From: Verrucomicrobiota bacterium
GTDB lineage: Bacteria > Verrucomicrobiota > Verrucomicrobiia > Chthoniobacterales > SZAS-18
Direction: 5' to 3'
Assembly (NCBI GenBank): GCA_018240025.1
Contig: JAFEGM010000032.1
Span: 129,618-193,617 of the forward strand
Length of the DNA stretch: 64,000 nucleotides
This document shows positions 1,233 through 64,000 of the stretch, piece after piece (within the stretch, counting starts at the first letter, position 1; the number at the start of each line of letters is the position of its first letter). The notes beneath the pieces were generated by a model that was given only the letters and a program-made list of their open reading frames with translations, did not search any database and had not been told where the DNA came from. A program made the translations under genes and the position numbers.

Positions 1233-2681
1233 ATGCCCAACGTCGCCGGACACCTCTACGAACAGGTCGCAGACAGCATCGCGGAGATGATCGAAGGCCG
1301 CGTGCTGCGGCCGGGCGATCGCGTGCCCTCGGTGCGCAAGCTGATGGCCCAGCGCGGCATCAGCCGCTCCACCGCCATGCAGGCTTTCCAGATTCTCGAA
1401 GGCCGCGGGATGGTCGAGGCGCGACCGCAATCCGGCTACTACGTCAAGCCACAGGCCGCGCATTTCCTGCCGGAGCCGGAACAGGCCCACCACCATCCGC
1501 ACCACGACGAATACGAGCACGTCGAGCTCGAGGGCACCGCGGCCAGCGTGGCGGCGGTGCTGGAATCCTTCCGTTACCACCCGGAGAACGTGCCTTTCGG
1601 CGTGGCTACGCCGGCCACGGAGCTGCTGCCGAATCGGGCGCTCAATCATTGCCTCGCGCACGCGGCGCGAACCGCGCCGGAATCGGCCAACCAGTACGAC
1701 TTCCCACCCGGCTACGCGGAACTGCGCCGGCAGCTGGCCCAGCGCGCGCCCGACGCTGGTTATCAGGTCGCGATGGAGGAGATCGTCACCACCTGCGGCT
1801 GCATGGAGGGGCTGAATCTGGCCCTGCGCGCGACCTGCCGTCCGGGGGATTCGGTGGCCATCGAATCGCCCACCTACCACGGCCTCCTGCAGGCGCTGGA
1901 GAGTCTCGGCCTGCGGGCGGTGGAGCTGCCGACGCATCCGAAGACGGGGGTCAGTCTCGAAGCCCTGGAGGCGACGCTGCGCAAGACGAAGATCAGCGCC
2001 TGCCTCTTCACGCCCACCTTCAACAACCCGCTGGGCAGCTGCATGCCGGAGGAATCGCGCCGCGTGCTGGTGCAGGACATCCTCGCTCCCCGGAGCATTC
2101 CGCTGATCGAGGACGAGATTTATGCCGATCTCTACCACGGCAGTGAGCGCCCCAAAGCCTGCAAGGCCTTCGACCGGGAGGGGCTGGTCCTGCTTTGCTC
2201 CTCCTTTTCGAAGAACCTCGCGCCTGGTTATCGCGTGGGCTGGATCGTCCCCGGACGCTTCCAGCAGCCGGTCCAGCTGCTCAAGTTCATGAACACGCTG
2301 GCCACGACCACGCACGTGCAGGCGGCCGTGGCCGAGTTCCTGCAATCCGGCGCCTTCGACCAGCATCTGCGCCGGCTGCGGCGGGCGCTGCGCGAACAGG
2401 TGCAGCGCGTTTCGAATGCGGTGGCCGAGTTCTTCCCGGCCGGCACCCGGGTGACGCGCCCGGCCGGCGGCTTCGTCCTGTGGGTCGAGCTGCCCGACCC
2501 CGCCAGCGACACCCGCGAACTGCACCGCGCCGCGCTGCGCCAAGGCATCAGCATCGCTCCCGGCCACATCTTTTCGGCCCGCGGCCGGCACGGGAATTTC
2601 CTCCGCCTGAGCTGCGGGCATCCGTGGAACGCCCGAATGGAGGAGGCGGTGGAGACGCTGGGGAGGCTGGCGGGGAGGTGA
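1233..2681 (+). CDS. MocR-family PLP-dependent transcriptional regulator
   Basis: Transcription factor of 482 residues joining an N-terminal GntR-type winged helix (about 1-75, with RPGDRVPSVRKLMAQRGISR) to a fold-type-I aminotransferase domain (about 100-480). The PLP-binding lysine is seen in SSFSKNLAPGYRVGW, and the PLP-phosphate and ring contacts are suggested by TTCGCMEGLN and LIEDEIYADL. Such proteins sense PLP or an amino acid and usually control a divergent gene; here the divergent partner is the DUF2917/EamA pair. The ATG at 1233 was chosen because the winged helix begins about ten residues later; the open frame extends upstream to 690, but that part is antisense to the DUF2917 gene. 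The ligand cannot be assigned. Confidence 0.9.
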   Translation: MPNVAGHLYEQVADSIAEMIEGRVLRPGDRVPSVRKLMAQRGISRSTAMQAFQILEGRGMVEARPQSGYYVKPQAAHFLPEPEQAHHHPHHDEYEHVELEGTAASVAAVLESFRYHPENVPFGVATPATELLPNRALNHCLAHAARTAPESANQYDFPPGYAELRRQLAQRAPDAGYQVAMEEIVTTCGCMEGLNLALRATCRPGDSVAIESPTYHGLLQALESLGLRAVELPTHPKTGVSLEALEATLRKTKISACLFTPTFNNPLGSCMPEESRRVLVQDILAPRSIPLIEDEIYADLYHGSERPKACKAFDREGLVLLCSSFSKNLAPGYRVGWIVPGRFQQPVQLLKFMNTLATTTHVQAAVAEFLQSGAFDQHLRRLRRALREQVQRVSNAVAEFFPAGTRVTRPAGGFVLWVELPDPASDTRELHRAALRQGISIAPGHIFSARGRHGNFLRLSCGHPWNARMEEAVETLGRLAGR

Positions 2682-2712
2682 GGGGATGCGTTCGGCTGGC
2701 TGAACGTTCTCC

Positions 2713-2900
2713 AGAAACTCGAAGCTCGAAACTCGAAGGAAGCTCGAAGTCCGAAGCTCGAAGTGCCTGCCCGGGCTTCTCCTCCGAGCTGCTACGACTT
2801 GGGCAGTCCACAGGGAGGGCTCCGCCGAAGCGCGCCAGTGAGGAGGCTATTCGAGTTTCGGACTTCCTTCGTGCTTCGAGTTTCGCTCTTCGAGTTTCTC
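2713..2900. repeat. Inverted arms of 7-bp repeats (CTCGAAG family)
   Basis: Bases 2713-2764 are a run of degenerate heptamers (CTCGAAG, CTCGAAA, CTCGAAG, CTCGAAG, TCCGAAG, CTCGAAG), broken once by a four-base insert. Bases 2850-2900 hold the reverse complement pattern (CTTCGAG, TTTCGGA, CTTCCTT, CGAGTTT). The two arms flank about 85 bp of unique sequence between the convergent MocR and subtilase genes. RNA from either strand could fold into a long imperfect hairpin. Confidence 0.75.
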
Positions 2901-2918
2901 TGCAGCACGTGTTCGCGG

Positions 2919-2957
2919 AAAAGAAAAAGCGGTGGCCGGCTAACGCCGACCACCGCT
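2919..2957 (-). terminator. Rho-independent terminator of the subtilase gene
   Basis: Read on the minus strand, AGCGGTGGTCGGC pairs with GCCGGCCACCGCT across a GTTA loop with one mismatch, followed at once by TTTTCTTTT. It lies about 20 bp after the subtilase stop codon. Confidence 0.75.
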
Positions 2958-2977
2958 GGGAACCGATTCGATCGAGC

Positions 2978-5900
2978 TTACGGGAAGATCAGCTCGACGC
3001 GGTAGAACTGCTTGCCGAAGCCGGTCGCGGCCGGGTCGTTGACCGTGAGGTCGGCGCCGGTGCCGACGATGTTCGAACCGACCTGGACCCAGGCGCCGGA
3101 GTCCATCGCGTCACGGTGCATGAGGCGATAGCTCTTGCCCGCGATGCTGCGGAAGGTCACGTCGGCGCCGGTGGTGCCGCTGCGCACGACGTTTACGATG
3201 GCCAGGCTGCTGGCGGCACTGCGCGGGTCGGTGCCGGCGCGGTATTCCTGCAGGTTGGTCATGCCGTCGCCGTCGAAGTCGAGGGCGGCGTCGTTCGGAT
3301 CGTTCGGATTCATGCCGTTGGCGATCTCGTAGGCGTCGGGGATGCCGTCACCGTCGGTGTCGTTCGAGACCGTGAAGTTGAACGAAGCCGTGTTGTTGGG
3401 CGTGTTCGTGTCCGTCTGCAGCAGCGTGGCCGTGCCGGAGATGCTGTTCGCGCCGGCCGCCGGCGTGAACTGGACATTGACCGACGTATTGGCCAGCGCG
3501 GCCAGGATGCCGAAGTTGACCGTGACCGTGTTCGTGCCGGCATTGTAGCTGGCCGTGCCCTGCGCCGGCGTGGCCGTGACCCCCGTGGCCCCGGTGGGCA
3601 GCGGAATGGTCAGGGTGAGGCCCGAGGCCGGATTGGCACCGTTGTTCGTCACCGTGAACGTGCCGGTGACGGTCGGGGTGGTGACGGTGGACGGGATGCC
3701 GCTGATCGCGAGGCTGACGTCGGTCGAGGTCGTGAGACACCCGCCGCCGTTGGTCGTGATGGTCAGCGACCAGCCGGCGAGTGTACCCGAGTCCAGATTC
3801 GCGTCGTCCGAGACGTAGAGAGACCAATTGCCGTTGGGCGAGACCCCGTTGAAGGCCGCCAAGGTGGTGCCCGGGGTGGTCGTCGGCGCTGGCGACGGGA
3901 AGGTGTCGCCCGTGGTCAGGTTGGTCGGCTTGTACGTGCCCGAGGTAATGGCCGTGGTGGTCAGCGAAGCCGTGGCCGCGTCGTCGAAGACGAGGTTCAG
4001 GTTCGTGCCGCCCGCGGTGCCGCCGGCGTCGGACATCGGGATGAGCACCTGGCCGGTGGGCGAGACGAGCATCATGTCGATGTCGGCCGTGAACGTGTGG
4101 GTCAGGCCGGTCAAGGTCAGCACCACCTTGGAGGTATTGCCGCCCATGCCCGAGACCGCGATGTTCGACGGGTAGGGATTCGAGGCGCTGCCGGTGGAGG
4201 CGCCCGTGCCCGTGGCCGGGATGGTGATGGTGCCCGAGCTGCTGAACGTCTGCGTGCCGCCGCCGACGCCCCAGACCTTGGTCAGGTTGGTCAGCGCGGT
4301 AGCGCCCTCCGCCGGAGCGAAGGTGGCCGTGACCGTGCCGGAGCAGGCCGCTCCACCGGTGAAGGTGAAGGAGCGCGAGGCGGTCGCGCCACCGGCGAGA
4401 ACGCCGATGTTCTGCGCCGCCGAGGGCGTGGGATCGAGCACGTTGCCGGTGGCGTTGAGCTTGACCGAAAGCGCCTGGAAGGCGGTTTCGCCAGCGTTGC
4501 GGACGGTCGCATTGACCACCACGACCTCACCCTGATCGGGCCAGGTGTTGGCGGGCGAGGCGCTTTCCGAAGTCAGCACCGCGGAGTCCAGCACCAGCGT
4601 GGCCGCGGTGGCGACCCGGAAGCCGGTGAAGTTGAGCGTCCCGTAGCTGGTGGCACCGTCCTGCAGGGCGAGCGGCAGGTTGTAGGTCGTATTCGAGGCG
4701 CCGTTGACCGTGAAGGTGAACGACTTCGTGACCGTGGCGCCCGGCGCGATGGCCCCGAACGCCTGCGGGCCGCTCGGGCTGCTCACCGGGGTGGTGGCCC
4801 CGAGGGTGCCGACGAGGTTCGTGAACGGCACCGTGCCGTTGTTCTTGACCGACAGATTGACCGTCACGACCTCGCCGATGTCGGGCAGGTTGTTGGCCGG
4901 CGTGAAGCTCTCGGAGGCCAGCGTGTAGCCCGCGGAAATCGGCGTCGGCGGCGAGCCGGCCGTGAGCAGGAAGCTGGCGGTGCCGATGGGCGTGCCGTTG
5001 TCGGTCAGATCGAAGGTCGCGATAATGCTGCCATTGACCGTCGAAGCCGCGGTGAACGTGTACGACTTCGTCACCGAGCCGCTGACCGGGATGGCACCGT
5101 AGCTCTGCGCGGCCGTAGGCGAGGTGACGCCGCCGGTCGCCTGCAGGGTGGCGACGAGATTGGTGGTGGGATTCGTGCCCACGTTCTTCAGCGCGAAGTC
5201 GAAGGTCACGACCTCGTTCGGGTCCGGCAGCGTGTTGGCCGGGGCGAACGACTCCGCCGTCAGCGTGGCGCCGTTGGGGACGACCGGCGCGGCCGAGGTA
5301 TTGTAGGCGTAGAGGGCGAAGTCCTGGTCGAGGGCATCAGCGTCGCCGGGGACACCGTCGGAGTTGATGCTCGTGGCGGTGACCGTGATCGTGACCGTGC
5401 CGATGGTGCCGGCCGGTAGGAAGACGCACTCGACGTTGTTGCGTACGTCGGCGACGCCGCCGGTGACCGAGTTGGCGCCCGTGAAGACGTTGCCGCGGTA
5501 GGTGTTGGCGCCGACCGCCACGGTCAGATCGAGATTGTTCTTGTAGGCGTTGCCGGTGGTGGCGCCGGGGGCGTCGGTCCAGGCCAGGGCGATGCGCACC
5601 GGCTTGGTCGGATCGAGCGCCGTCAGGACGTACGTGCGGGTCTGGCCGGTGGCCGTGAACTTGTCGGCCGTCAGCTGGTCGCGCAGGAAGACCTGGGCGG
5701 TGTCGAACATGCGGCTCATGTCGACCATGCCCATGCCCTGGTTGTTGGAGGGCAGGGTGTCATTCGCGGCCACGCCGGTCATGTAACGCGCCGTGCCCAT
5801 CAGCACGGCCTTGGTCATGGCCGGGCTCGGCGCGGTGCGACCTTTGTTCAGGAAATCCTGGCGGATGAGCGCCGAGGTGCCCGAGACCGCAGGGCAGGAA

Positions 5901-53722: not shown

Positions 53723-54427
53723 CTATGTCGGCGCGCCGTGTCCGCCCATGAGTGCGCGTTGCAGCAACGCCATCTCCCCGTCGACCTCGTCGGGCGCGCC
53801 CACCGTCAGTGCGACCTCGCGCCGTAGCAGCGTGCGGAAGGCACCACGCACGCGGTGCACATCGCTCTTCAGCGCGGCTAGGGAGAGTCCGGCGCTGCGG
53901 GCAGCCTCCTCGTAGGGCGGAACATCCGTCGAACCCGGCAGGAAGCGTCGCAGAACGGCGAAATGGCCGACCTCGCGCCAGTCGTCGTGCAGGCGTTGCA
54001 GCGCATGGCCGAGGAGCTCGCGGGCCCAGCGCTCGTCGAAGGCGTCGACCGCAGCCTGCTCCCCGGCGGGCACGCTGTCAGGGGCGAGCGAATCGAGGCT
54101 GACCGTGGTGACCGCACCGCCGCGCTTCTGCGCCGCGAGGCGGTCGGCCCGGTCGCCCAGAAAGCGTTTCAGCGCGCCAAGCAGGAAGGAGCGAAAGCGC
54201 CCGCGATCGCGGTCCACGCGTCGCAGCGTCTCGCGTTCCTGCAGGTGCAGGAGGAAGTCGTGCGCCACGTCCTCGACCTCGTCCGGGCGGATCCCCCGCC
54301 AGCGCAGGAACTCGAGAATCGCATCCCGGTACCGCTCGCACAGATGCCCGAAGGCCCGCGCCTCGGCGTCGCCACCGCCGGCGGTGCGGAGCGCGAGTTG
54401 GGTCCAGCGGGTGGTCGGGAAATCCAT
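53723..54427 (-). CDS. ECF-type RNA polymerase sigma factor
   Basis: Alternative sigma factor of 234 residues. Region 2 is visible as FGHLCERYRDAILEFLRWRG, and VEDVAHDFLLHLQE (the 'D.aQ..f' core helix), followed by RGRFRSFLLGALKRFLGDRADR. Region 4 is AARSAGLSLAALKSDVHRVRGAFRTLLRREV, a helix-turn-helix for -35 recognition. The sequence type matches the Planctomycetes/Verrucomicrobia ECF groups found beside Ser/Thr kinases with propeller domains; phosphorylation control by the adjacent kinase is inferred. No anti-sigma gene is seen. It begins 110 bp from the divergent membrane-protein gene. Confidence 0.92.
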   Translation of the reverse strand: MDFPTTRWTQLALRTAGGGDAEARAFGHLCERYRDAILEFLRWRGIRPDEVEDVAHDFLLHLQERETLRRVDRDRGRFRSFLLGALKRFLGDRADRLAAQKRGGAVTTVSLDSLAPDSVPAGEQAAVDAFDERWARELLGHALQRLHDDWREVGHFAVLRRFLPGSTDVPPYEEAARSAGLSLAALKSDVHRVRGAFRTLLRREVALTVGAPDEVDGEMALLQRALMGGHGAPT

Positions 54428-54537: not shown

Positions 54538-54858
54538 ATGTGGCGTCTGCTCCTCCTTCGCCTCCTGACCGCCGGCGTGGTGGCGGGTCTGCTCCTCTTC
54601 CTTGCGGTTCTCGCACTCAGCGCGGTCGATGGCCACGGCAAAGGCGACGCCCTCCGCGCGCCCGAAGGCGGGCTCTTGCGCGGGGTCGTCGAGCGCTATC
54701 GCGCCGGCGAGCACTCGGGGCGCGAGTTCGCCAAGCGCTGGGGGCACGAGACGATCACCTGGACCTTTCTTGGCGCGGCCGGCGGAGGTTTGTTTCTCGC
54801 CTTCAGCGGCGTGTTGCCGTGGTGCCGGCGGGAGTTTCTCGATCTGCCCCATCGCTGA
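54538..54858 (+). CDS. Small two-helix membrane protein, unknown
   Basis: Protein of 106 residues with a long N-terminal helix (LLLRLLTAGVVAGLLLFLAVLALSAV), a charged loop (about 30-70, containing VVERYRAGEHSGREFAKRWGHE) and a second helix (TITWTFLGAAGGGLFLAFSGVL). The polar loop would face outside or inside depending on topology, which the charges do not settle. No family recognised. The next gene starts five bases after its stop codon, so the pair is probably co-transcribed, divergent from the ECF sigma gene. Confidence 0.65.
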   Translation: MWRLLLLRLLTAGVVAGLLLFLAVLALSAVDGHGKGDALRAPEGGLLRGVVERYRAGEHSGREFAKRWGHETITWTFLGAAGGGLFLAFSGVLPWCRREFLDLPHR

Positions 54859-54863
54859 TCCGT

Positions 54864-55361
54864 ATGCAACGTCGCCGACCATTCCTGGCCTGCGCACTTG
54901 GCGCGCTCCTGCTGTCCTCGGTTGCGCCCTGCGCTGTGGCCGCCGACCGGCAGGCGGTCAGCGGCACGCCCACCTTGGCGGGAAGGCCGATCGAACGCTT
55001 CGTGCTGCTCGCGCCGATCGTCGTGCCGGCGGCGAAGATCGGACCCGTGCAGGGTGGATTCCTGCTGCTGGCCGGCCAGTACGTGCCGGTGGCGCAGGAC
55101 GCGGAGGGCGTCTTCTTCCAGTCGCGCAACGGCATTCGCCGGGGGTATGGCGACGAGGGGCTGGATGACGGCGGCGTCTGGGTCAGCAAGACCAAGGGCG
55201 GCGTAATGGTCCCCTATTCCGGCCGCGCCGCGAAGCTGAGCGAGCCGGTTCTGGTGCGCTGGAACAGCCCGCTTCCGCTCGACGACATGCGCCAGTTCCG
55301 TACGGCCAGCGCGCAGAAGGGGAATGCAAAGGCTCCCCGCAACACGGCTGGAACCAAGTAG
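54864..55361 (+). CDS. Exported protein of unknown function
   Basis: Exported protein of 165 residues with a signal peptide (MQRRRPFLACALGALLLSS, cleavage near AVA-ADRQ). The mature part is predicted beta-rich, with GGFLLLAGQYVPVAQDAEG and FFQSRNGIRRGYG. The C-terminus is Lys/Ala/Thr-rich. No family is recognised. The start lies five bases after the previous gene's stop codon; the open frame reaches back to 54105 but only antisense to the sigma gene. A 97-bp spacer separates it from the giant gene. Confidence 0.65.
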   Translation: MQRRRPFLACALGALLLSSVAPCAVAADRQAVSGTPTLAGRPIERFVLLAPIVVPAAKIGPVQGGFLLLAGQYVPVAQDAEGVFFQSRNGIRRGYGDEGLDDGGVWVSKTKGGVMVPYSGRAAKLSEPVLVRWNSPLPLDDMRQFRTASAQKGNAKAPRNTAGTK

Positions 55362-55458: not shown

Positions 55459-58400
55459 ATGAATGCCTCATCGTTTTCGGCGCGCTTTTGCGCCAGTCTG
55501 CTCGGCCTGGCCTTGCTCTTCAGCCCGCCGCCGCAGTCCACGCGGGCGCAGTCGACCGCCGATGCGCTGGCCTTCACCGCGGCGCCCCAGTTCGTGTCGG
55601 GGTCGGGGTGGCGGCTGACTTTTCGGTCCGAGCCCGGGCGCCAGTACCGCATCGATCGCAGCGTCGACCTGCAGAACTGGACGCTCGATATCGGCACCGT
55701 CACCGCGGCCGGGACGAGCACGCTCTTCGTCGACCCCGACCAAACCACGGCCGGGCGTCGGTTCTGGCGCGCGGTGCTGCTGCCCGGCGACGCCCAGGCG
55801 CCGGTCATCGGCGGGGTCGATGCGCGCATCCTGCTGGTCGGCGGTGTGCCGGCGCTGCAGTTCCGGGTCACGGCCAGCGACAACGTGGCGGTGGCGGGGG
55901 TGCTCTTCCTCGACGGCGTCAGCGCGCCGCTGGGCGAGGGGGCGTTCGATGCGGCCGAGGCGCTTTGGAAGATCACCCAGCCGCTGCCGACCGACACCTT
56001 CGCGGTGCGCGAGGTCAAGGCCCGGGCCCGCGACGCCGCCAACAACACGGCCGACTCGCCGCTGGCCCGCTTTACGCTTTTCGACCCGACCCGCTTCGCG
56101 CGGCTCGACGGCGCGGGCAATCCGTTGCGCGGCGCGCCGCCGACGGTCGATGCGCTGGGCAACCTCGGGCCGTTCGCCATGTTTGCGGGCGGCGGCGGAG
56201 CGCTCGGCACGGGCGCCGATCTCGTGCTGCGCTTTCCGAACGGCGCGCGCGTCGTCACCCAGGGCACGCAGAAGTTCCTCGAATTCAACCAGGTCAGCGC
56301 GGCGTTCGGTGCTGAGAGCCCATTCGAAATCGCGCAGAATCCGCCCATCATCCAGCGCGGTGGGTCGCGACCTTCGCCGCAGGCGCTGCTGACGCCGCGG
56401 CAACTACCCATCGGCGCGCTGACCGTGAGCGACCTCCTCACGGCGCTCGATCTGCCCGCGACCGACGGCCTGCCGGTCCGAATCTTCCAGCGCTTCGAGA
56501 CACGCCTGCGGGCTGGCTCGCTCCTGCCCGAAGGATGGGTCGCGCCGCAGTTCGAGTTCGATCCGGCCAAGTTCCCCGGCCTGCCCACGCTCTCCGCCAT
56601 CTATCAGGGGCTGGTGCTGGACCTGAGCGATCCGCGCGCAGTGCGGATCCCGTTCCACGGCGAGATCCCGCTGACCGACGGCACGCCCAATCCGCCCGTG
56701 CTGCGCGTGCCGGCCGAGAATCCGCTCTGGCTGACGCTCCGCGCCGAGGGCTCGGTCGCGCTGGAAGGCCGCGCGGAAGTCAGCATTCCTGCGACCGGCC
56801 TGCGCATCCGCGTCGGGGTGCGTCTCGACGATCCGAACTACCGCCTGCGGGTCAGCGCCGACACGCCCGAGGTGGCGCTGATCGACCAACTCGCGCCGCG
56901 GCTGCCCGCTCCGCCGGCCAGCGTCAATGCCGCACAGTTGGACGCCGAATCTGCGCGACTCGCCGCGCTGCAGCGCGCCGTGCGGCATTTCACCGCGGCC
57001 GCGCTCGGCGGCGCGCCGACGCCCACGACGTCGGCGGGGCTGGCCGCCCAGGTGCCGTTCGCGCCGCCGACGGAAATACCGGTGCTCGCGCACCTGCTCG
57101 AAGCGTGGACCGAGAGCGCGGCCAGCGGCGGATTGGGGACGATCGAGCCCGCGCCCTTGCTCGCGCTGCAGAACTTTGCCCGGCAGCTCGCGCTCGCCGG
57201 CGGGGCCGCCCGCGACCTGCGGGCCATCGCCTCGGATCTCGCGGCAGTGGTGCGCGCGCGCCAGATCCTCGCCTCGGCCACGCTGCAGCCGGCGCTCGAC
57301 TCGGCATTGGCCGACCTCGAGGCCGCAGCAATCGCCCGCGCCAGCGAGCCGGCAGGCACCGCCACCTTGACCGATCTGGTGGCCACGCTGCGCGCACTGG
57401 CCGAAGCCAAGGCTGCCTATCAGGCCATCGGCCGCACTTTTCCGGTCACCCTGCTGGCCGGGCTCGATCGCCTCGTCAACGACCTGCTCGCCGCCCGGGC
57501 GCGCAGCCTCGGAGTCACCGCCAGCGCGTATGCGCCGCTGGCCGGCGGCCCCGTGGCGGCGCTCGGGCGGTTGCCGGCCCTGCAGCAGATGCGCGATCTG
57601 CGCGACCTGCTCGCCGCGGCCCAGGCGCTCGGGCTCCAGCCGGCGGCGGGCAATTTCTCGGTCTTCACCGCGCCGGTGGGGGAACTGGTCAATCAACTCG
57701 CCGCCCGCGCGACCGATCTGCTCAACGTGGCGGCCGTCGAGGCGGAGTCGCGGCGCGACTACCGCGCGGTCCTCAGCGCGCTGGAGGATCTCATCGATCT
57801 CGTCGCGCTCCGGCAGGCCGGGTTCTTTCCTTCGGCCGGAGCGGGCGCGCTGAATGCCGCCGGTCTGGCCGCGACGCTGAGCGCGAGCTTGGTGAACCGC
57901 CTCGACGCCGCCTCGCTGGCCGATCTCGCCAAGCCCGTGGAGGAGCGGGCCTGGTTCGACCGGGCCGGCGATCTCGTCCGGCTGACGAACGTCCTGGCCG
58001 ACCTCGACGCCGCCGCGCCCGCGCTGACCTTCGCGGCTGGCCCATTCACTCGCGCCATCAATGCCATGGAGCCGGCGCTCGGCGCAGCGGTCAATGCGGG
58101 CGCGCTGGCCGGGGTGGCGCGTCCGGGCGATCTCGTTCGTCTGCTCGCCGCCGGGTCGCTGCACGATCGGCTCGCGCGGCGTTTCGGCGGCACCGGTGTG
58201 CGCTGGGACAATGACCGACTCCCGCAGGTGGTGGCGCGGCTGACCGTGCTGGCGCAGACGCAGAAGAGCTGGAGCGAGCTGTTCGACGCAGCCGGCGTGC
58301 TCCTGGCCGAGGCCGAGCAGATCCGTCTCGAGGCCCTCCGCGCCGGCGCGAACCAGGCCGACCTCGCGGTGCGTCGCACGCGTTATCTCGACCAGACCGC

Positions 58401-61400
58401 GGCCCTCGTCGCCGTCGCGAGGACGGTGGGACTCGCGGTGCAGGCCGATGTCTCCACGCGCCGCGGCGCGGCCGGTCCGGCGGCTTTCGCGTTCCAACTG
58501 CCGGGCGAGGTGCAGGTCATGGACCCATGGGGCGCGCTCGACTTCGTGCGCACCACCGGTGCCCTGCGGGGCGCGATCGGCGGCCGGCTGCTCCTGCCGG
58601 GTCTGCTCGGCACGACCCAGCTCGACGTGAAGTCGCTGACGTTGAGCAATCGCGGCGCCTTCGATCTGACCGCGAGCGGGACCATCGATGCCATGCCGCT
58701 GGGCACGCTGACTGGCTCGCTCGAGGTCCTGCCGCGGCGGCCTCTGCGACTGAGTTATCGGCCCGGGCAGCCGCTGGCCGTGGCCGGCAGCGCGCGGCTC
58801 ACGCTCAGCAACGGCTTCTTCTTCGAGGGCTACATCGATTTCCGCGACCCGCTCTACAAGTTCGGCGCGGCCACGGGCGGACTGCGCTTCGACCTCGCCA
58901 ACCGCCTGCTCGTCGACCTGCCGCCGAACGTGAACTTCTCCGCCGTGCCCGCGCAGACGGCCGCGGTCTGGGCCGGTTATCTGCAGCAGCTCGGCGCCAG
59001 CGTCGAGCCGCTCATCGACCTCGCGCAGACGCCGCTGCTCGGGCAGCCCGGCCGGCCACCGGAGTTCCGCGATCCGGCGCTCGCGTTCCAATACGCCGAT
59101 CTCGGCGCCTGGGTGGCCGCGCTCCGGGTCGATGCCTCGTTCGCCACGGCCGGCACTGTGGGCAGTCTGCTCGGTTTCCTGCGCGAGCATCTCGCCAATG
59201 CCAGCACCGGCGCGGCCCAGCTCGCGGGTGGACTCGAACTGCAGCGCAAACAGCAGGAGCTGACCGCGCTCAACGCCCAGCTGCGCGCGACGGTGGAGGC
59301 GCTCCCGGCGGGCGGTCTGCGCGATCAGGTGAAGCTCGACCCCGCCGTGCGGGCTTACGCGCAAACGGCCACGCCGCGGGTGCGGCAGGTGCTGCAGGAC
59401 CCGCTCTCGGCCGCCAGCGCGGAGAATGCCCGCGTGGCCGTGCGTCTGGCGGCCGATCACGACGCGACCTTATCGGCGCTCGGGTTATCGCCCGCCTTCG
59501 TCGGCGATCCCATCTACGCGCAGATCCTGGAGATCGGCTTCGGCAACCGCCTGACGGAACTCGGCCTCAGTGCAACGACAGGGCAGGTGGCCAATGCGAC
59601 GACCTTCGAGGCGCTCTCCCGGGTGCAGATCGTCGACGCCCTCGGCGAACTCGCCGATCTCAAGGCCACCCAGCAGCTCGCCGCCGGCGGCACGGTCGAT
59701 GCCCGTTTTCTTCAGGCCTCGCTCGAATTGGCGCGTCGCCTGCGCAACCTGACCGCGGCGGCGTTGCAGGCGACGCCGACTTCGGACTGGCAGCGGCAGA
59801 CTGAGCTGCAGCGCGATCTCGTCTATCTCGCCGTGGGCGATCAGGCCGGTCAGCTCGTGGTCGATGCGACGCTGCGCGCCCAGCTGCAGAGCGACCTCGC
59901 GGCCGCCGAGGCCGCCAGTCCCACCCTCGCCGCCGCGCGCGAGGCCGATGAGCAGGCTCGCGCCGCCAATCCGCTGTACGAAGTCTGGGCGCAGGTGCGC
60001 GATCAGCTCCGGCGGCTCGGCACCACTCCGACCACGCTGGACGAGGCCGCTCGCACCCGCGTCCGACGCGAGATGCAGGCGCGGCTCGACACCTTCGCGG
60101 TCAGGCTCCCGCTCTCGCCCACGGCCATCGCCGATCTCTCGCGCGATCTGCGCGATCTGGCGGAGTTGGTCGGCTCCGCCCAGGACCTGCTCGGGCCGGA
60201 CGATCCCGTCTCCGCCTCGGCCCGCACCAAGCTGGCCGAGACCTCGATCACGATCCCCGGCGTGGCTAACGCCCAACGCGCGTGGTGGGAATTGACCGAG
60301 TATGCGCGCCTCGTGAACGAGGCACTCTCTCGGCGGCCGAACCTCGTCGGCACCGCGGCGGGCAACGCCCTGCGCGGCGCACTCGACGCTTCGCTCACCT
60401 CGGCGCTCGGCCTGATCAATGCGCTCAAGCCGCAGATCCAGGCGAATCGGCCGTTGGACATCCGCCTGCCGGGCAATCTCGTCGTGCGGCGCGCCTTCGG
60501 CGATTTCCTCTACCGGCGCACGCCGCCGCTCTTCACGGCCACCTTCGGCGGACAGTTCGAGTTCCCGGAGATCAACACGCGCTTCACGCTCAACAGCGCG
60601 AGCATTTCCTCCACCGGTGCCTGGTCGCTGAATCTGGCGGCCTCGGGCGACCTCAACGCGGGTGGCGACGGACTGCGTTATCGGATCAACTCGTTCTCGC
60701 TCAGCGGCACTGCGGCCGGCGGCCTGAGCAGCGGCAGCGGTGCCGGCCAGTTGCTGGTGGCGCGAGCCGATCAGCCGACCGCACCGCCGGACGTGTACGA
60801 CGTCACGCTCTTCTACGGCCAGCCCGGCGGCACCGGGCCGCGCGTCTTCGACCTCACCACCACGGCCACCGGGAAGTTCGTCTTCGATCCGAACTTCGTC
60901 GTCTTCAACGCCACGCTCGGGCTGCGCTTCACCACCGATTTCACCGGCGGCCGCCTCTCGACCAGCGGCACGGCCGGCTTCTTCGCGCGGGGCGTCTTCA
61001 ATGCGGCCACCTGCACGCCGAACGACTTCGAGTGCACGATCGAGAACGCCGGACTCGTCTACACTTACTCGCCCAGCGGCTTCACGGTTGATCTCAATGG
61101 CGGCACGCTCCTCCTGCCCGTCTTCCAGCAGGTGGTCGGCAGCGTGGCCTGCAGCGGCACGGGGCCGTTGGCGGATCGCCCCGCGACGCCGGCGCCGCCG
61201 AGCGTCACGCTGAGCGCGCCCCTGCGGCTGGCGGTCACCTACGCGCAGGGCAGCACGCCTTCGAGCGTCACCTTCGGCACGCCGGGCGGACAGCCGCTCG
61301 ACGTCGCCTTCGCCAATCTCGGCCTGGCCATTCCGGGGCTGCCCGACTTCCGACTCGACATCTGCTCGGCCACGCTCCGCTTCCCCTTCACGCCCGGCGC

Positions 61401-64000
61401 GTTCCCGATCCTGCGCGACTTCAATGCGAAACTCGAGCTGCCGCTGCCGAACGACGCGAACGGCCAGCCGCAGCGCGTGCGCACCCGCATTGCCGGCAAG
61501 AACTGGCGCACCAACGGCTTCCCCGAGCAACTCAGCGTCACGCTCGATCAGAACTTCCGCGTGGTCGACACGCCCAATCTCAAGCTCGAGATCCTCGCCA
61601 GCGTGGCCGATTGCAGCAGCCAGCCCGCCGGTCTCGACTTCTTCACCGAGCCCGGGCCGAATGCGGGCGAGACGACTAACGCCTTTCGCATTCGCGGCGG
61701 CGCGCGGATCGAGACCGATGTCGTGCGCGATGCGGGCACCGGCGGGTCGGTCGCCATCGGCACGTGCGGCACGCTCACCCTGCGCTTCGACTACAACGGG
61801 GCGGGCGTCTTCCAGCGGGTGCGGCCGGAGATCGGGTTCAATCAAATCACGCTGAGCGGCCAGTTCCGGCTGGGCGGGCCTGAGGGCATCGAGCTCACCG
61901 GGCCGAGCGGCGGCGCGACGCCGGCCACGATCTCACTACAGAATCTCCCCAACTTCCTGGCGCCGAGCGCGGCAAATCCGTTCCAGATCCGGCTAGATGG
62001 CCGCGTCACCTTCGGCGCGTTCGGGGCGTTCGTGCTCGACAATGCGTTCTTCAACTTCGCGGGTCCCGGATTGCCCACATTCAGCGGACGCATGGCGCTG
62101 GTGGCCGGTCAGCAGCTGCAGCTTCTGCAGAGTTCGTCGGCCCTGCCGGTGACCATCACGGAAGTCGGTCTGACCTTCGCCAACAATCTGCCGCTCGATC
62201 AGGCGTTCCGACCGCAGAACCTGCAGATCGATCTGAGCGGCTTCGCGGACTTCAAGCTCCCCACCGGCCAGGGCGACGCCACCGCCACCGGCGATGCTGG
62301 TCCGGGCAGCAAGATCCCGCGGCTGTTCTTCGCGCTCGATCATTTCCGCTTCAGCTTCCCGAACGGCTTCGCAGCGCCGCCCACGGTTTCGACCAACGGG
62401 CTGACCGGTGAGATCCAGAACCTGAGCGTGGGCGATTTCGTCGGCCTGACCGGCGGTCTTTCGCTGCAGGGACTGCAGGGGCCGGCCGAGGCGATCACGA
62501 TCGGCGGCGTGGTCGGCACCACCATCAAGGGCGTCGGCGCGAAGGTCGCGCTGGCCGCCAAGATGTCGGGGCTCGTCTCGCTCTGCCTCGACCTCAACCT
62601 CGGTCCGGCCGGCATTCCCATCGACGGCGGCGCGCTCGGCGGCGTGTTGCTGACCGGAGCGAGCGGCGGCGTGAACTTCGCCAATCTCGGCGCGCCCGAT
62701 CCCTGCAGCGCCTTTGCCCGCCTCGGCTTCGGCCGCGACGGACGTCCGCTGGCCGCGGCGCGCGGTTCGGCGCTGGAGCGAGCCCGCCTGGCCGAACCCG
62801 TGGGCCTGCCGTGGGGCGAGGCCTTCGCGCGGGCCGATGCCTTGGAGCGCACGGCCGGCCGCAGCTTGAACTTCGACGCGGTGCCGATGGTGCAGTCGCC
62901 CGATCCGCGCGTGGCCGAGGAACGGCGGGCTCGCGCCGCCGCGCTCGAGGTCGCGGCGCTGCAGGGCGTCACGCTCGATCTGCCCGGCGACTGTCCGACG
63001 GGCGATTGCCCGCCCGCCACGCTCAACCTGCTCTGCCAGCTGCATCCCTCGCACGGCCAGCCGCCGGGGGCAGGTAACTACAACGGCCTCTTCGCGGGCG
63101 ACACGATCGTGAAGTTCACCTCGCTCTCCAGCGGGCAGGTCGACGCCATCATCACCGCCGCCGGACTCGACGGCCTGCTCGGCAGCGCCGGGGTCGGGCA
63201 GAGCACGAGCAATGCGACCATCGCGGCCCAGTTCTCCACCCAGGTGCGCAGCACGGTCAGCGGGCTCATCCCGCGCCTGCCGCAGGGTGCGCCGGGGGAG
63301 ATCGACGTGAACCTGGCCATCGAGGACGCGCTCGACCTGCTGCGCGACACGCTGCGGAACACCACGCGCTCGGCGCTCGATCTCGCCACCGGTGGGCTCA
63401 GTCCCCGCGACGCCCTGCGCAAGGCGGGTTACGCCGGCCTCAAGTGCCAGGACATCACGCTCAAGCTGCAGGGCACGCTCAGCCACGCCGCGGTCTCGAC
63501 CTTCCTCGCGCTCGACGGCGGCTACACGGTTTCCACGCGTGGCTTCGGCAGCATCGCCGGCGCGCTCAAGCTCGTGGGCATTCCGGTCGGCACGGCCAAT
63601 CTCTCGCTCGCGCTCAGCAACGCGACCGGCGATTTCGCCCCGCTGCTCTGCGGTTCGGTCGATGTGGGCCTCGGTCCGTTGGAATTCGGCGGGCTGCGGC
63701 TGCGCTTCGATCCGGGTCTGAACACGAACGCCGTGCTGACCGCGCTGGGCACGTTCGTAACCGGACTGGCCGGCGACGCTGCCGAAGCGATCTACCAGAT
63801 GATCGACGCCGCCAACGGCCCCGGGGTGACGGCCAATCGCGGCACGCCGCTGGTCAACTTCTTCCAGCCGAGCTACGCGGCCGGCGTGCCGGCCGACAGC
63901 CGCCTGACGCCGGCGCAGCAGCAGGCCGTGCTCGCGCAGCTTTTCAATCTGCAGAATCTCACCGCCATCGCCGGACTTTCGCCGGCCGGACTCGCCACGC
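55459..64000 (+). CDS. Giant exported protein, runs off window (>2,840 residues)
   Basis: One frame runs from ATG 55459 to the last base with no stop: 2,847 complete codons. The N-terminus is a signal peptide (SARFCASLLGLALLFSPPP, cleavage near TRA-QST). Residues about 45-110 form a module (GWRLTFRSEPGRQYRIDRS, VDLQNWTLDIG, RRFWRAVLLP) that also ends two large secreted peptidases here. Residues about 480-990 and 1165-1655 are helical, Ala/Leu/Arg-rich, coiled-coil-like blocks. Beta-rich segments alternate with these (for example YKFGAATGGLRFDLANRLLV and GQFEFPEINTRFTLNSASI), often with repeated G-x-F/L patterns and few cysteines. No enzyme motif is seen. It is probably a surface or periplasmic structural protein; the organisation is unlike any family I recognise. 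Confidence 0.88.
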   Translation, partial: MNASSFSARFCASLLGLALLFSPPPQSTRAQSTADALAFTAAPQFVSGSGWRLTFRSEPGRQYRIDRSVDLQNWTLDIGTVTAAGTSTLFVDPDQTTAGRRFWRAVLLPGDAQAPVIGGVDARILLVGGVPALQFRVTASDNVAVAGVLFLDGVSAPLGEGAFDAAEALWKITQPLPTDTFAVREVKARARDAANNTADSPLARFTLFDPTRFARLDGAGNPLRGAPPTVDALGNLGPFAMFAGGGGALGTGADLVLRFPNGARVVTQGTQKFLEFNQVSAAFGAESPFEIAQNPPIIQRGGSRPSPQALLTPRQLPIGALTVSDLLTALDLPATDGLPVRIFQRFETRLRAGSLLPEGWVAPQFEFDPAKFPGLPTLSAIYQGLVLDLSDPRAVRIPFHGEIPLTDGTPNPPVLRVPAENPLWLTLRAEGSVALEGRAEVSIPATGLRIRVGVRLDDPNYRLRVSADTPEVALIDQLAPRLPAPPASVNAAQLDAESARLAALQRAVRHFTAAALGGAPTPTTSAGLAAQVPFAPPTEIPVLAHLLEAWTESAASGGLGTIEPAPLLALQNFARQLALAGGAARDLRAIASDLAAVVRARQILASATLQPALDSALADLEAAAIARASEPAGTATLTDLVATLRALAEAKAAYQAIGRTFPVTLLAGLDRLVNDLLAARARSLGVTASAYAPLAGGPVAALGRLPALQQMRDLRDLLAAAQALGLQPAAGNFSVFTAPVGELVNQLAARATDLLNVAAVEAESRRDYRAVLSALEDLIDLVALRQAGFFPSAGAGALNAAGLAATLSASLVNRLDAASLADLAKPVEERAWFDRAGDLVRLTNVLADLDAAAPALTFAAGPFTRAINAMEPALGAAVNAGALAGVARPGDLVRLLAAGSLHDRLARRFGGTGVRWDNDRLPQVVARLTVLAQTQKSWSELFDAAGVLLAEAEQIRLEALRAGANQADLAVRRTRYLDQTAALVAVARTVGLAVQADVSTRRGAAGPAAFAFQLPGEVQVMDPWGALDFVRTTGALRGAIGGRLLLPGLLGTTQLDVKSLTLSNRGAFDLTASGTIDAMPLGTLTGSLEVLPRRPLRLSYRPGQPLAVAGSARLTLSNGFFFEGYIDFRDPLYKFGAATGGLRFDLANRLLVDLPPNVNFSAVPAQTAAVWAGYLQQLGASVEPLIDLAQTPLLGQPGRPPEFRDPALAFQYADLGAWVAALRVDASFATAGTVGSLLGFLREHLANASTGAAQLAGGLELQRKQQELTALNAQLRATVEALPAGGLRDQVKLDPAVRAYAQTATPRVRQVLQDPLSAASAENARVAVRLAADHDATLSALGLSPAFVGDPIYAQILEIGFGNRLTELGLSATTGQVANATTFEALSRVQIVDALGELADLKATQQLAAGGTVDARFLQASLELARRLRNLTAAALQATPTSDWQRQTELQRDLVYLAVGDQAGQLVVDATLRAQLQSDLAAAEAASPTLAAAREADEQARAANPLYEVWAQVRDQLRRLGTTPTTLDEAARTRVRREMQARLDTFAVRLPLSPTAIADLSRDLRDLAELVGSAQDLLGPDDPVSASARTKLAETSITIPGVANAQRAWWELTEYARLVNEALSRRPNLVGTAAGNALRGALDASLTSALGLINALKPQIQANRPLDIRLPGNLVVRRAFGDFLYRRTPPLFTATFGGQFEFPEINTRFTLNSASISSTGAWSLNLAASGDLNAGGDGLRYRINSFSLSGTAAGGLSSGSGAGQLLVARADQPTAPPDVYDVTLFYGQPGGTGPRVFDLTTTATGKFVFDPNFVVFNATLGLRFTTDFTGGRLSTSGTAGFFARGVFNAATCTPNDFECTIENAGLVYTYSPSGFTVDLNGGTLLLPVFQQVVGSVACSGTGPLADRPATPAPPSVTLSAPLRLAVTYAQGSTPSSVTFGTPGGQPLDVAFANLGLAIPGLPDFRLDICSATLRFPFTPGAFPILRDFNAKLELPLPNDANGQPQRVRTRIAGKNWRTNGFPEQLSVTLDQNFRVVDTPNLKLEILASVADCSSQPAGLDFFTEPGPNAGETTNAFRIRGGARIETDVVRDAGTGGSVAIGTCGTLTLRFDYNGAGVFQRVRPEIGFNQITLSGQFRLGGPEGIELTGPSGGATPATISLQNLPNFLAPSAANPFQIRLDGRVTFGAFGAFVLDNAFFNFAGPGLPTFSGRMALVAGQQLQLLQSSSALPVTITEVGLTFANNLPLDQAFRPQNLQIDLSGFADFKLPTGQGDATATGDAGPGSKIPRLFFALDHFRFSFPNGFAAPPTVSTNGLTGEIQNLSVGDFVGLTGGLSLQGLQGPAEAITIGGVVGTTIKGVGAKVALAAKMSGLVSLCLDLNLGPAGIPIDGGALGGVLLTGASGGVNFANLGAPDPCSAFARLGFGRDGRPLAAARGSALERARLAEPVGLPWGEAFARADALERTAGRSLNFDAVPMVQSPDPRVAEERRARAAALEVAALQGVTLDLPGDCPTGDCPPATLNLLCQLHPSHGQPPGAGNYNGLFAGDTIVKFTSLSSGQVDAIITAAGLDGLLGSAGVGQSTSNATIAAQFSTQVRSTVSGLIPRLPQGAPGEIDVNLAIEDALDLLRDTLRNTTRSALDLATGGLSPRDALRKAGYAGLKCQDITLKLQGTLSHAAVSTFLALDGGYTVSTRGFGSIAGALKLVGIPVGTANLSLALSNATGDFAPLLCGSVDVGLGPLEFGGLRLRFDPGLNTNAVLTALGTFVTGLAGDAAEAIYQMIDAANGPGVTANRGTPLVNFFQPSYAAGVPADSRLTPAQQQAVLAQLFNLQNLTAIAGLSPAGLAT

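What the first reader, a model, noticed from the sequence alone, without database searches (positions are those of the whole stretch)
55459..64000. Exported protein of more than 2,840 residues with unknown architecture
An open frame of 8.5 kb without stop begins with a signal peptide and alternates coiled-coil-like helical blocks with beta-rich segments. No known adhesin, polyketide synthase or TolA-like signature is evident. It sits downstream of a kinase/ECF pair and two small envelope genes.
Basis: seen in the sequence. Interest (0 to 1): 0.65.

Follow-up and report, generated by a model that had tools for sequence, protein, structure and literature searches.

The report
Giant exported protein, unnamed core family
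This open frame is the first half of a 5,838-residue exported protein whose central part belongs to a previously unnamed family of giant bacterial proteins, found patchily in Verrucomicrobiota and a few other phyla and distantly related to the uncharacterised DUF6603 proteins.

Summary
The frame runs past the window to window-equivalent base 72975: 5,838 aa, about 605 kDa, one intact ORF. It has a signal-peptide-like start and no other transmembrane segment. The window's 2,847 aa match no Pfam, NCBIfam or PDB family. The unseen half carries HYDIN/ASH-type Ig domains, two laminin-G-like lectin domains, YCF48/BNR repeats and a single-copy cysteine-tipped C-terminal domain. A core of about 1,700 aa (residues ~1600-3320) is conserved at 25-35% identity in more than 35 other giants (2,700-6,110 aa), mostly Verrucomicrobiota, but also Algoriphagus, Planctomycetota, Myxococcota and a Syntrophobacteraceae MAG. 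It is rare: 9 of 384 genomes of the class, and only this one of 213 in the order. AlphaFold gives helical hairpins followed by about 35 long antiparallel strands; Foldseek finds LptD, chorein and apolipoprotein-like sheets, all with low TM-scores. The Algoriphagus and Syntrophobacteraceae forms lack a signal peptide and start with a DUF6603-type N-terminal domain (hhalign E 9e-7). The core's beta domain also resembles DUF6603 (E 5e-4). Function is unproven. Most likely it is a cell-surface or extracellular binding scaffold; a hydrophobic-groove role is the main rival.

The parts
55459..64000 (+). Giant exported protein, first 2,847 of 5,838 aa; the gene continues beyond the window to window-equivalent 72975
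   Evidence: colinear relatives
55459..55551 (+). Signal-peptide-like N-terminus (residues 1-31)
   Evidence: Sequence itself; hydrophobic N-termini also in most verrucomicrobial relatives. No predictor run
55573..55812 (+). N-terminal 'YxIxRSxDLxxW' module (residues 39-118), shared with other exported-type ORFs of the genome and of relatives
56230..56991 (+). Conserved beta-type block (residues 258-511), 33-38% identical in G049/G088/G117
56992..58242 (+). First Ala/Leu-rich helical block (residues ~512-928)
   Evidence: Composition; alignment
58243..58683 (+). First copy of the beta module (residues 929-1075), a repeat of the start of the main beta domain
   Evidence: A2 profile vs N-terminal part E 5e-14
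59059..60258 (+). Second Ala/Leu-rich helical block (residues ~1201-1600)
60259..62868 (+). Core part 1 (residues 1601-2470): helical hairpin then about 35 antiparallel strands; its C-terminal third shows remote similarity to DUF6603
62950..64000 (+). Core part 2 (residues 2498-3324, continuing outside the window): CPxGDCPPATVNxxCQPHP ... DYFPHGGxLG ... YxPAPNPP; helical bundles alternating with beta meanders
53723..54427 (-). ECF sigma factor (start probably 54427), divergent from the giant
   Evidence: similar neighbour in L038, L042, L027
50382..53438 (-). Ser/Thr kinase with C-terminal WD40-like repeats
54538..54858 (+). Small hydrophobic ORF (106 aa), not conserved next to relatives
54864..55361 (+). 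Small exported-type ORF, not conserved next to relatives

Best explanation
A single 605-kDa exported protein that most likely acts as a cell-surface or extracellular binding scaffold. Shown: one intact ORF; a hydrophobic start and no other transmembrane segment; helical hairpins alternating with long beta meanders; a conserved core found in more than 35 other giants; Ig-like, laminin-G-like and YCF48/BNR modules in the C-terminal half. Inferred: Sec export to the envelope or outside; the core forms an elongated stalk or groove; the C-terminal modules bind glycans or proteins; the neighbouring ECF/kinase pair controls expression.
For: Signal-like starts in nearly all complete verrucomicrobial members and no other hydrophobic span. 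ASH/HYDIN Ig, two LamG_3, YCF48 and a weak PEGA hit in the C-terminal half; ASH/HYDIN Ig and YCF48 again in L056, L035, L051 and L037, LamG_3 in L056 and L035. Colinear core in over 35 loci. Patchy distribution, more like a niche surface protein than housekeeping. Literature: most bacterial giant genes are surface proteins or PKS/NRPS (Reva & Tummler, as cited in PMC5177795). An ECF or ECF-kinase pair also lies next to the giants in L038, L042 and L027: 3 seen against about 0.5 expected within 4 kb at this genome's ECF density.
Against: Two relatives (Algoriphagus, Syntrophobacteraceae) lack a signal peptide and show no C-terminal binding modules, so the core may not have arisen as a surface stalk. 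No known anchor or sorting signal; the C-terminal domain has no paralogue in the genome. Binding was not tested; ASH-type Ig and LamG-like domains also occur in enzymes and structural proteins. The ECF excess is small and rests on one genome's ECF density.
Confidence: 0.5

Rival explanations
1. The core is a long amphipathic beta groove that carries hydrophobic ligands or lipids, working like AsmA/VPS13-type bridges, LptD or apolipoprotein-type sheets, with the Ig/LamG part as a docking region.
For: About 35 consecutive long antiparallel strands. Strand faces are amphipathic: none of 2,000 shuffles reached the observed total, and the hydrophobic face is 6% charged against 26% on the other face. 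Foldseek: LptD best (E 3e-5); apolipoprotein B and MTP among weak hits; a mimivirus chorein-domain protein second in the viral library (E 1.2e-3). Lipid-enzyme-like neighbours of the unsecreted homologues: patatin and a PhoD-like phosphatase overlapping the Syntrophobacteraceae gene.
Against: TM-scores are only 0.10-0.18 with rmsd above 12 A. No Pfam AsmA/TamB match. hhalign to E. coli TamB, YhdP and LptD is null. Any soluble beta sheet is amphipathic. Rare and patchy, unlike housekeeping lipid bridges.
Confidence: 0.27
2. A delivery or attack protein: a giant surface weapon or toxin-like protein used on other cells, as proposed for PVC giants.
For: PVC giants have been read as predatory weapons (PMC12057145). 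A Paenibacillus DUF6603 gene lies roughly 10 kb from baseplate-like and GH-E nuclease genes.
Against: No toxin, peptidase or peptidoglycan-hydrolase domain found in the giant; no linked secretion or immunity genes seen; no match in phages or viral contigs.
Confidence: 0.1
3. A periplasmic or cell-shape structural protein rather than a surface one.
For: Ig-like and PapD-like domains were noted in a planctomycetal giant suggested to act in cell shape (PMC5177795).
Against: LamG-like and BNR modules are commoner outside the cell; patchy distribution within the order argues against a basic structural role.
Confidence: 0.1

Closest known systems
DUF6603 (Pfam PF20248), uncharacterised proteins of about 850-1,400 aa in actinomycetes, haloarchaea, Rhizobium, Paenibacillus and others
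   Same: N-terminal helical domain shared with the unsecreted homologues (hhalign E 8.8e-7, prob 91.5%); beta domain remotely similar to core part 1 (score 46 against a shuffle maximum of 23.5)
   Different: No HMM match. The window protein lacks the DUF6603 N-terminal domain, has a signal peptide and is several times longer, with core part 2 and Ig/LamG modules
Giant surface proteins of the PVC superphylum (PMC5177795, PMC12057145)
   Same: Size above 15 kb, exported-type start, Ig-like and lectin-like modules
   Different: Those were grouped by size only; this core family is not named in the papers found
AsmA/TamB/YhdP and VPS13-type repeating beta-groove proteins, LptD
   Same: Long runs of antiparallel strands
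   Different: No sequence or profile similarity; TM-scores at most 0.18

Membership tests
DUF6603 (PF20248) | Match to the Pfam model | tested here: not met
   hmmscan of the window protein, L058, L045 and all A2/A3 members: none; own genome none
DUF6603 (PF20248) | N-terminal helical domain of DUF6603 proteins | tested here: not met
   Absent from the window-type giants (E 0.54) but present in Algoriphagus and Syntrophobacteraceae homologues (E 8.8e-7)
DUF6603 (PF20248) | Profile similarity of the beta domain | tested here: met
   hhalign E 4.8e-4, score 46.1 against a maximum of 23.5 in 40 column shuffles; reversed control E 0.03. Remote homology only
AsmA/TamB/YhdP superfamily | Pfam model or profile match | tested here: not met
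AsmA/TamB/YhdP superfamily | Continuous hydrophobic beta groove | tested here: inconclusive
Multidomain surface adhesin | Signal peptide plus extracellular binding modules | tested here: met
   Signal-like start; ASH Ig, LamG_3 and YCF48; no predictor for the signal peptide
Multidomain surface adhesin | Surface anchor or sorting signal (LPXTG, PEP-CTERM, T9SS-CTD, autotransporter barrel) | tested here: not met
   C-terminus ...VCLLGCP, no Pfam match, single copy in genome
Multidomain surface adhesin | Adhesion or binding activity | not testable with these tools
   Needs experiment
PKS/NRPS giants | Ketosynthase, condensation or adenylation domains | tested here: not met

The most novel reading that the evidence does not exclude
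A previously unrecognised superfamily, joining DUF6603 and these exported giants, of long beta-groove proteins that hold or pass hydrophobic molecules, which in Verrucomicrobiota became extracellular carriers or bridges with lectin-like docking ends.
Probability: 0.2. Interest if true: 0.85.

Novelty: new variant of a known kind. Interest (0 to 1): 0.5.

Why it matters
It turns a lone giant ORF into a defined family with a conserved core of about 1,700 residues that the profile libraries searched do not name. Members occur in a cultured Pelagicoccus and a cultured Algoriphagus, so it can be tested. It also gives a first lead linking the uncharacterised, widely spread DUF6603 proteins to exported giants.

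Tried and rejected
Single-sequence search of genome contigs found nothing; the six-giant alignment was needed. Chance ORF: rejected by codon bias and colinear homologues. AsmA/TamB/LptD by profile: null. Viral or plasmid origin: no relatives in phages or viral contigs; the one plasmid hit covers 93 residues at the crystallin-like stretch of the Algoriphagus protein only. Conserved histidines as a metal or active site: dropped, because the window protein has Tyr in FPYGG where most have His. C-terminal domain as a shared sorting signal: single copy. Neighbours of DUF6603 genes as a clue to function: no informative domain. Papers on DUF6603: none held.

Full report
Observation. The + strand frame starting at ATG 55459 has no stop before 64000. 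The window lies at G000:C47:129618-193617. Reading on in the contig, the frame ends with TGA at window-equivalent 72975, giving 5,838 aa and about 605 kDa. Codon-position GC of 0.68/0.54/0.89 is typical of a real gene here. No other member was found among the 213 genomes of the same order. That order includes 0.9-Mb genomes and is probably Chthoniobacterales; this is my inference from the genome sizes, not a tool result.

Anatomy. Residues 1-31 look like a signal peptide. No 19-residue window elsewhere is hydrophobic enough for a membrane span. Residues 39-118 match a module found in two other places of the genome and in relatives. Then come a conserved block (258-511), an Ala/Leu-rich helical block, a first copy of the beta module (929-1075), a second helical block, core part 1 (1601-2470) and core part 2 (2498-3324). 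The first beta module is a true repeat of the start of core part 1 (hhalign E 5e-14). Beyond the window there are ASH/HYDIN-type Ig domains, two LamG_3 domains, YCF48/BNR repeats and a weak PEGA hit, ending in a domain of about 450 aa with a cysteine-rich tip (...CARVESGGVCLLGCP) that has no second copy in the genome. The first 2,847 aa match no Pfam, NCBIfam or PDB sequence family.

Relatives. Only the N-terminal module matches in near relatives. A search of 188 class genomes with residues about 1615-2514 found five other giants with frames of 4,334-4,953 aa. Their alignment found 35 loci in genome contigs. These are mostly Verrucomicrobiota MAGs, plus Pelagicoccus mobilis (4,857 aa), Algoriphagus antarcticus (2,915 aa, Bacteroidota), and Planctomycetota, Myxococcales and Syntrophobacteraceae MAGs. 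The core aligns over about 1,500-1,800 residues in complete members. The gene from the Opitutales MAG L043/G139 is 38% identical from residue 2511 to the very end. In the tree the window protein sits, on a long branch and with moderate support (83/78), near L056, L038, L027, L028 and L035. The family is rare: 4 of 388 genomes of the phylum sample, 9 of 384 of the class sample, 1 of 213 of the order.

Structure. AlphaFold of core part 1 (26 sequences, pLDDT 76.5, pTM 0.54) gives two long helices and then about 35 consecutive antiparallel strands. Core part 2, modelled on the Algoriphagus protein (pLDDT 76.4, pTM 0.68), alternates helical bundles with beta meanders. Foldseek found LptD for part 1 (E 3e-5, TM 0.15), weak TamA/BamA, LptD and apolipoprotein-type hits for part 2, and a phage tail fibre and a mimivirus chorein-domain protein in the viral library. 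These agree on long antiparallel sheets but do not establish a shared fold. Strand faces are amphipathic beyond shuffling, which any soluble sheet would show.

Link to DUF6603. The Algoriphagus and Syntrophobacteraceae homologues lack a signal peptide. A 14-protein DUF6603 alignment matches their N-terminus over 183 columns (E 8.8e-7, prob 91.5%). It also matches core part 1 over 157 columns (E 4.8e-4, score 46.1; the largest of 40 column shuffles was 23.5). The two matches are colinear and the reversed controls are weaker. I take this as probable remote homology, not membership: the Pfam model does not match, and the window protein lacks the DUF6603 N-terminal domain.

Neighbourhood. The ECF and WD40-kinase genes are divergent from the giant. 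A similar pair lies directly upstream of the giant in L038 with the same orientation, an ECF-kinase pair lies upstream in L042, and an ECF gene lies just downstream in L027. With 19 ECF hits in this 6.3-Mb genome, about 0.5 would be expected within 4 kb of the 35 loci by chance. The excess is suggestive only. The unsecreted homologues are preceded by a patatin gene and by a PhoD-like phosphatase gene that overlaps the giant by 4 bases (the PhoD reading is from sequence, not from an HMM).

Mechanism. Shown: a giant intact gene, exported-type start, helical/beta architecture, conserved core, binding-type modules in the C-terminal half. Inferred: Sec export; an elongated core that presents the C-terminal Ig/LamG/BNR modules; ECF/kinase control. 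I put the surface or extracellular scaffold reading at 0.5, a hydrophobic-groove carrier at 0.27, and attack or structural roles at about 0.1 each.

Limits. E-values of hhalign are for single comparisons. MAG genomes are incomplete and several members are split or cut. No signal-peptide predictor and no model coordinates were available. Both structure models have moderate confidence.

Noticed in passing
L003 13314-19001 (window-equivalent about 85696 onward): Another long exported-type ORF (1,896 aa, still open at the end of the fetched stretch) about 13 kb downstream of the giant.
   Followed up: no
L045 5673-8117: PhoD-like phosphatase ORF overlapping by 4 bases the unsecreted homologue in a Syntrophobacteraceae MAG; a patatin gene precedes the Algoriphagus homologue (L058 4646-6271).
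   Followed up: partly
L058, about residues 1990-2026 of the giant: A beta/gamma-crystallin-like insert; among the core members scanned it was seen in the Algoriphagus homologue only.
   Followed up: no
L081, L082, L083, L085, L086, L076: DUF6603 genes on plasmids of haloarchaea, Streptomyces, Rhizobium and Paenibacillus sit in runs of large unnamed genes; those scanned have almost no Pfam matches.
   Followed up: partly
L076 1-7000 and 14389-17115: Paenibacillus polymyxa plasmid p-YT9A: baseplate-like genes, DUF4280 and a GH-E nuclease roughly 10 kb from a DUF6603 gene.
   Followed up: no
L028, L049, L050: The giant appears as two adjacent ORFs, either frameshifted in the assembly or truly split.
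   Followed up: no
L039/L051 and L048/L049: Two MAGs (KLAP45 and PLM2.Bin11) each carry two members of the family.
   Followed up: no
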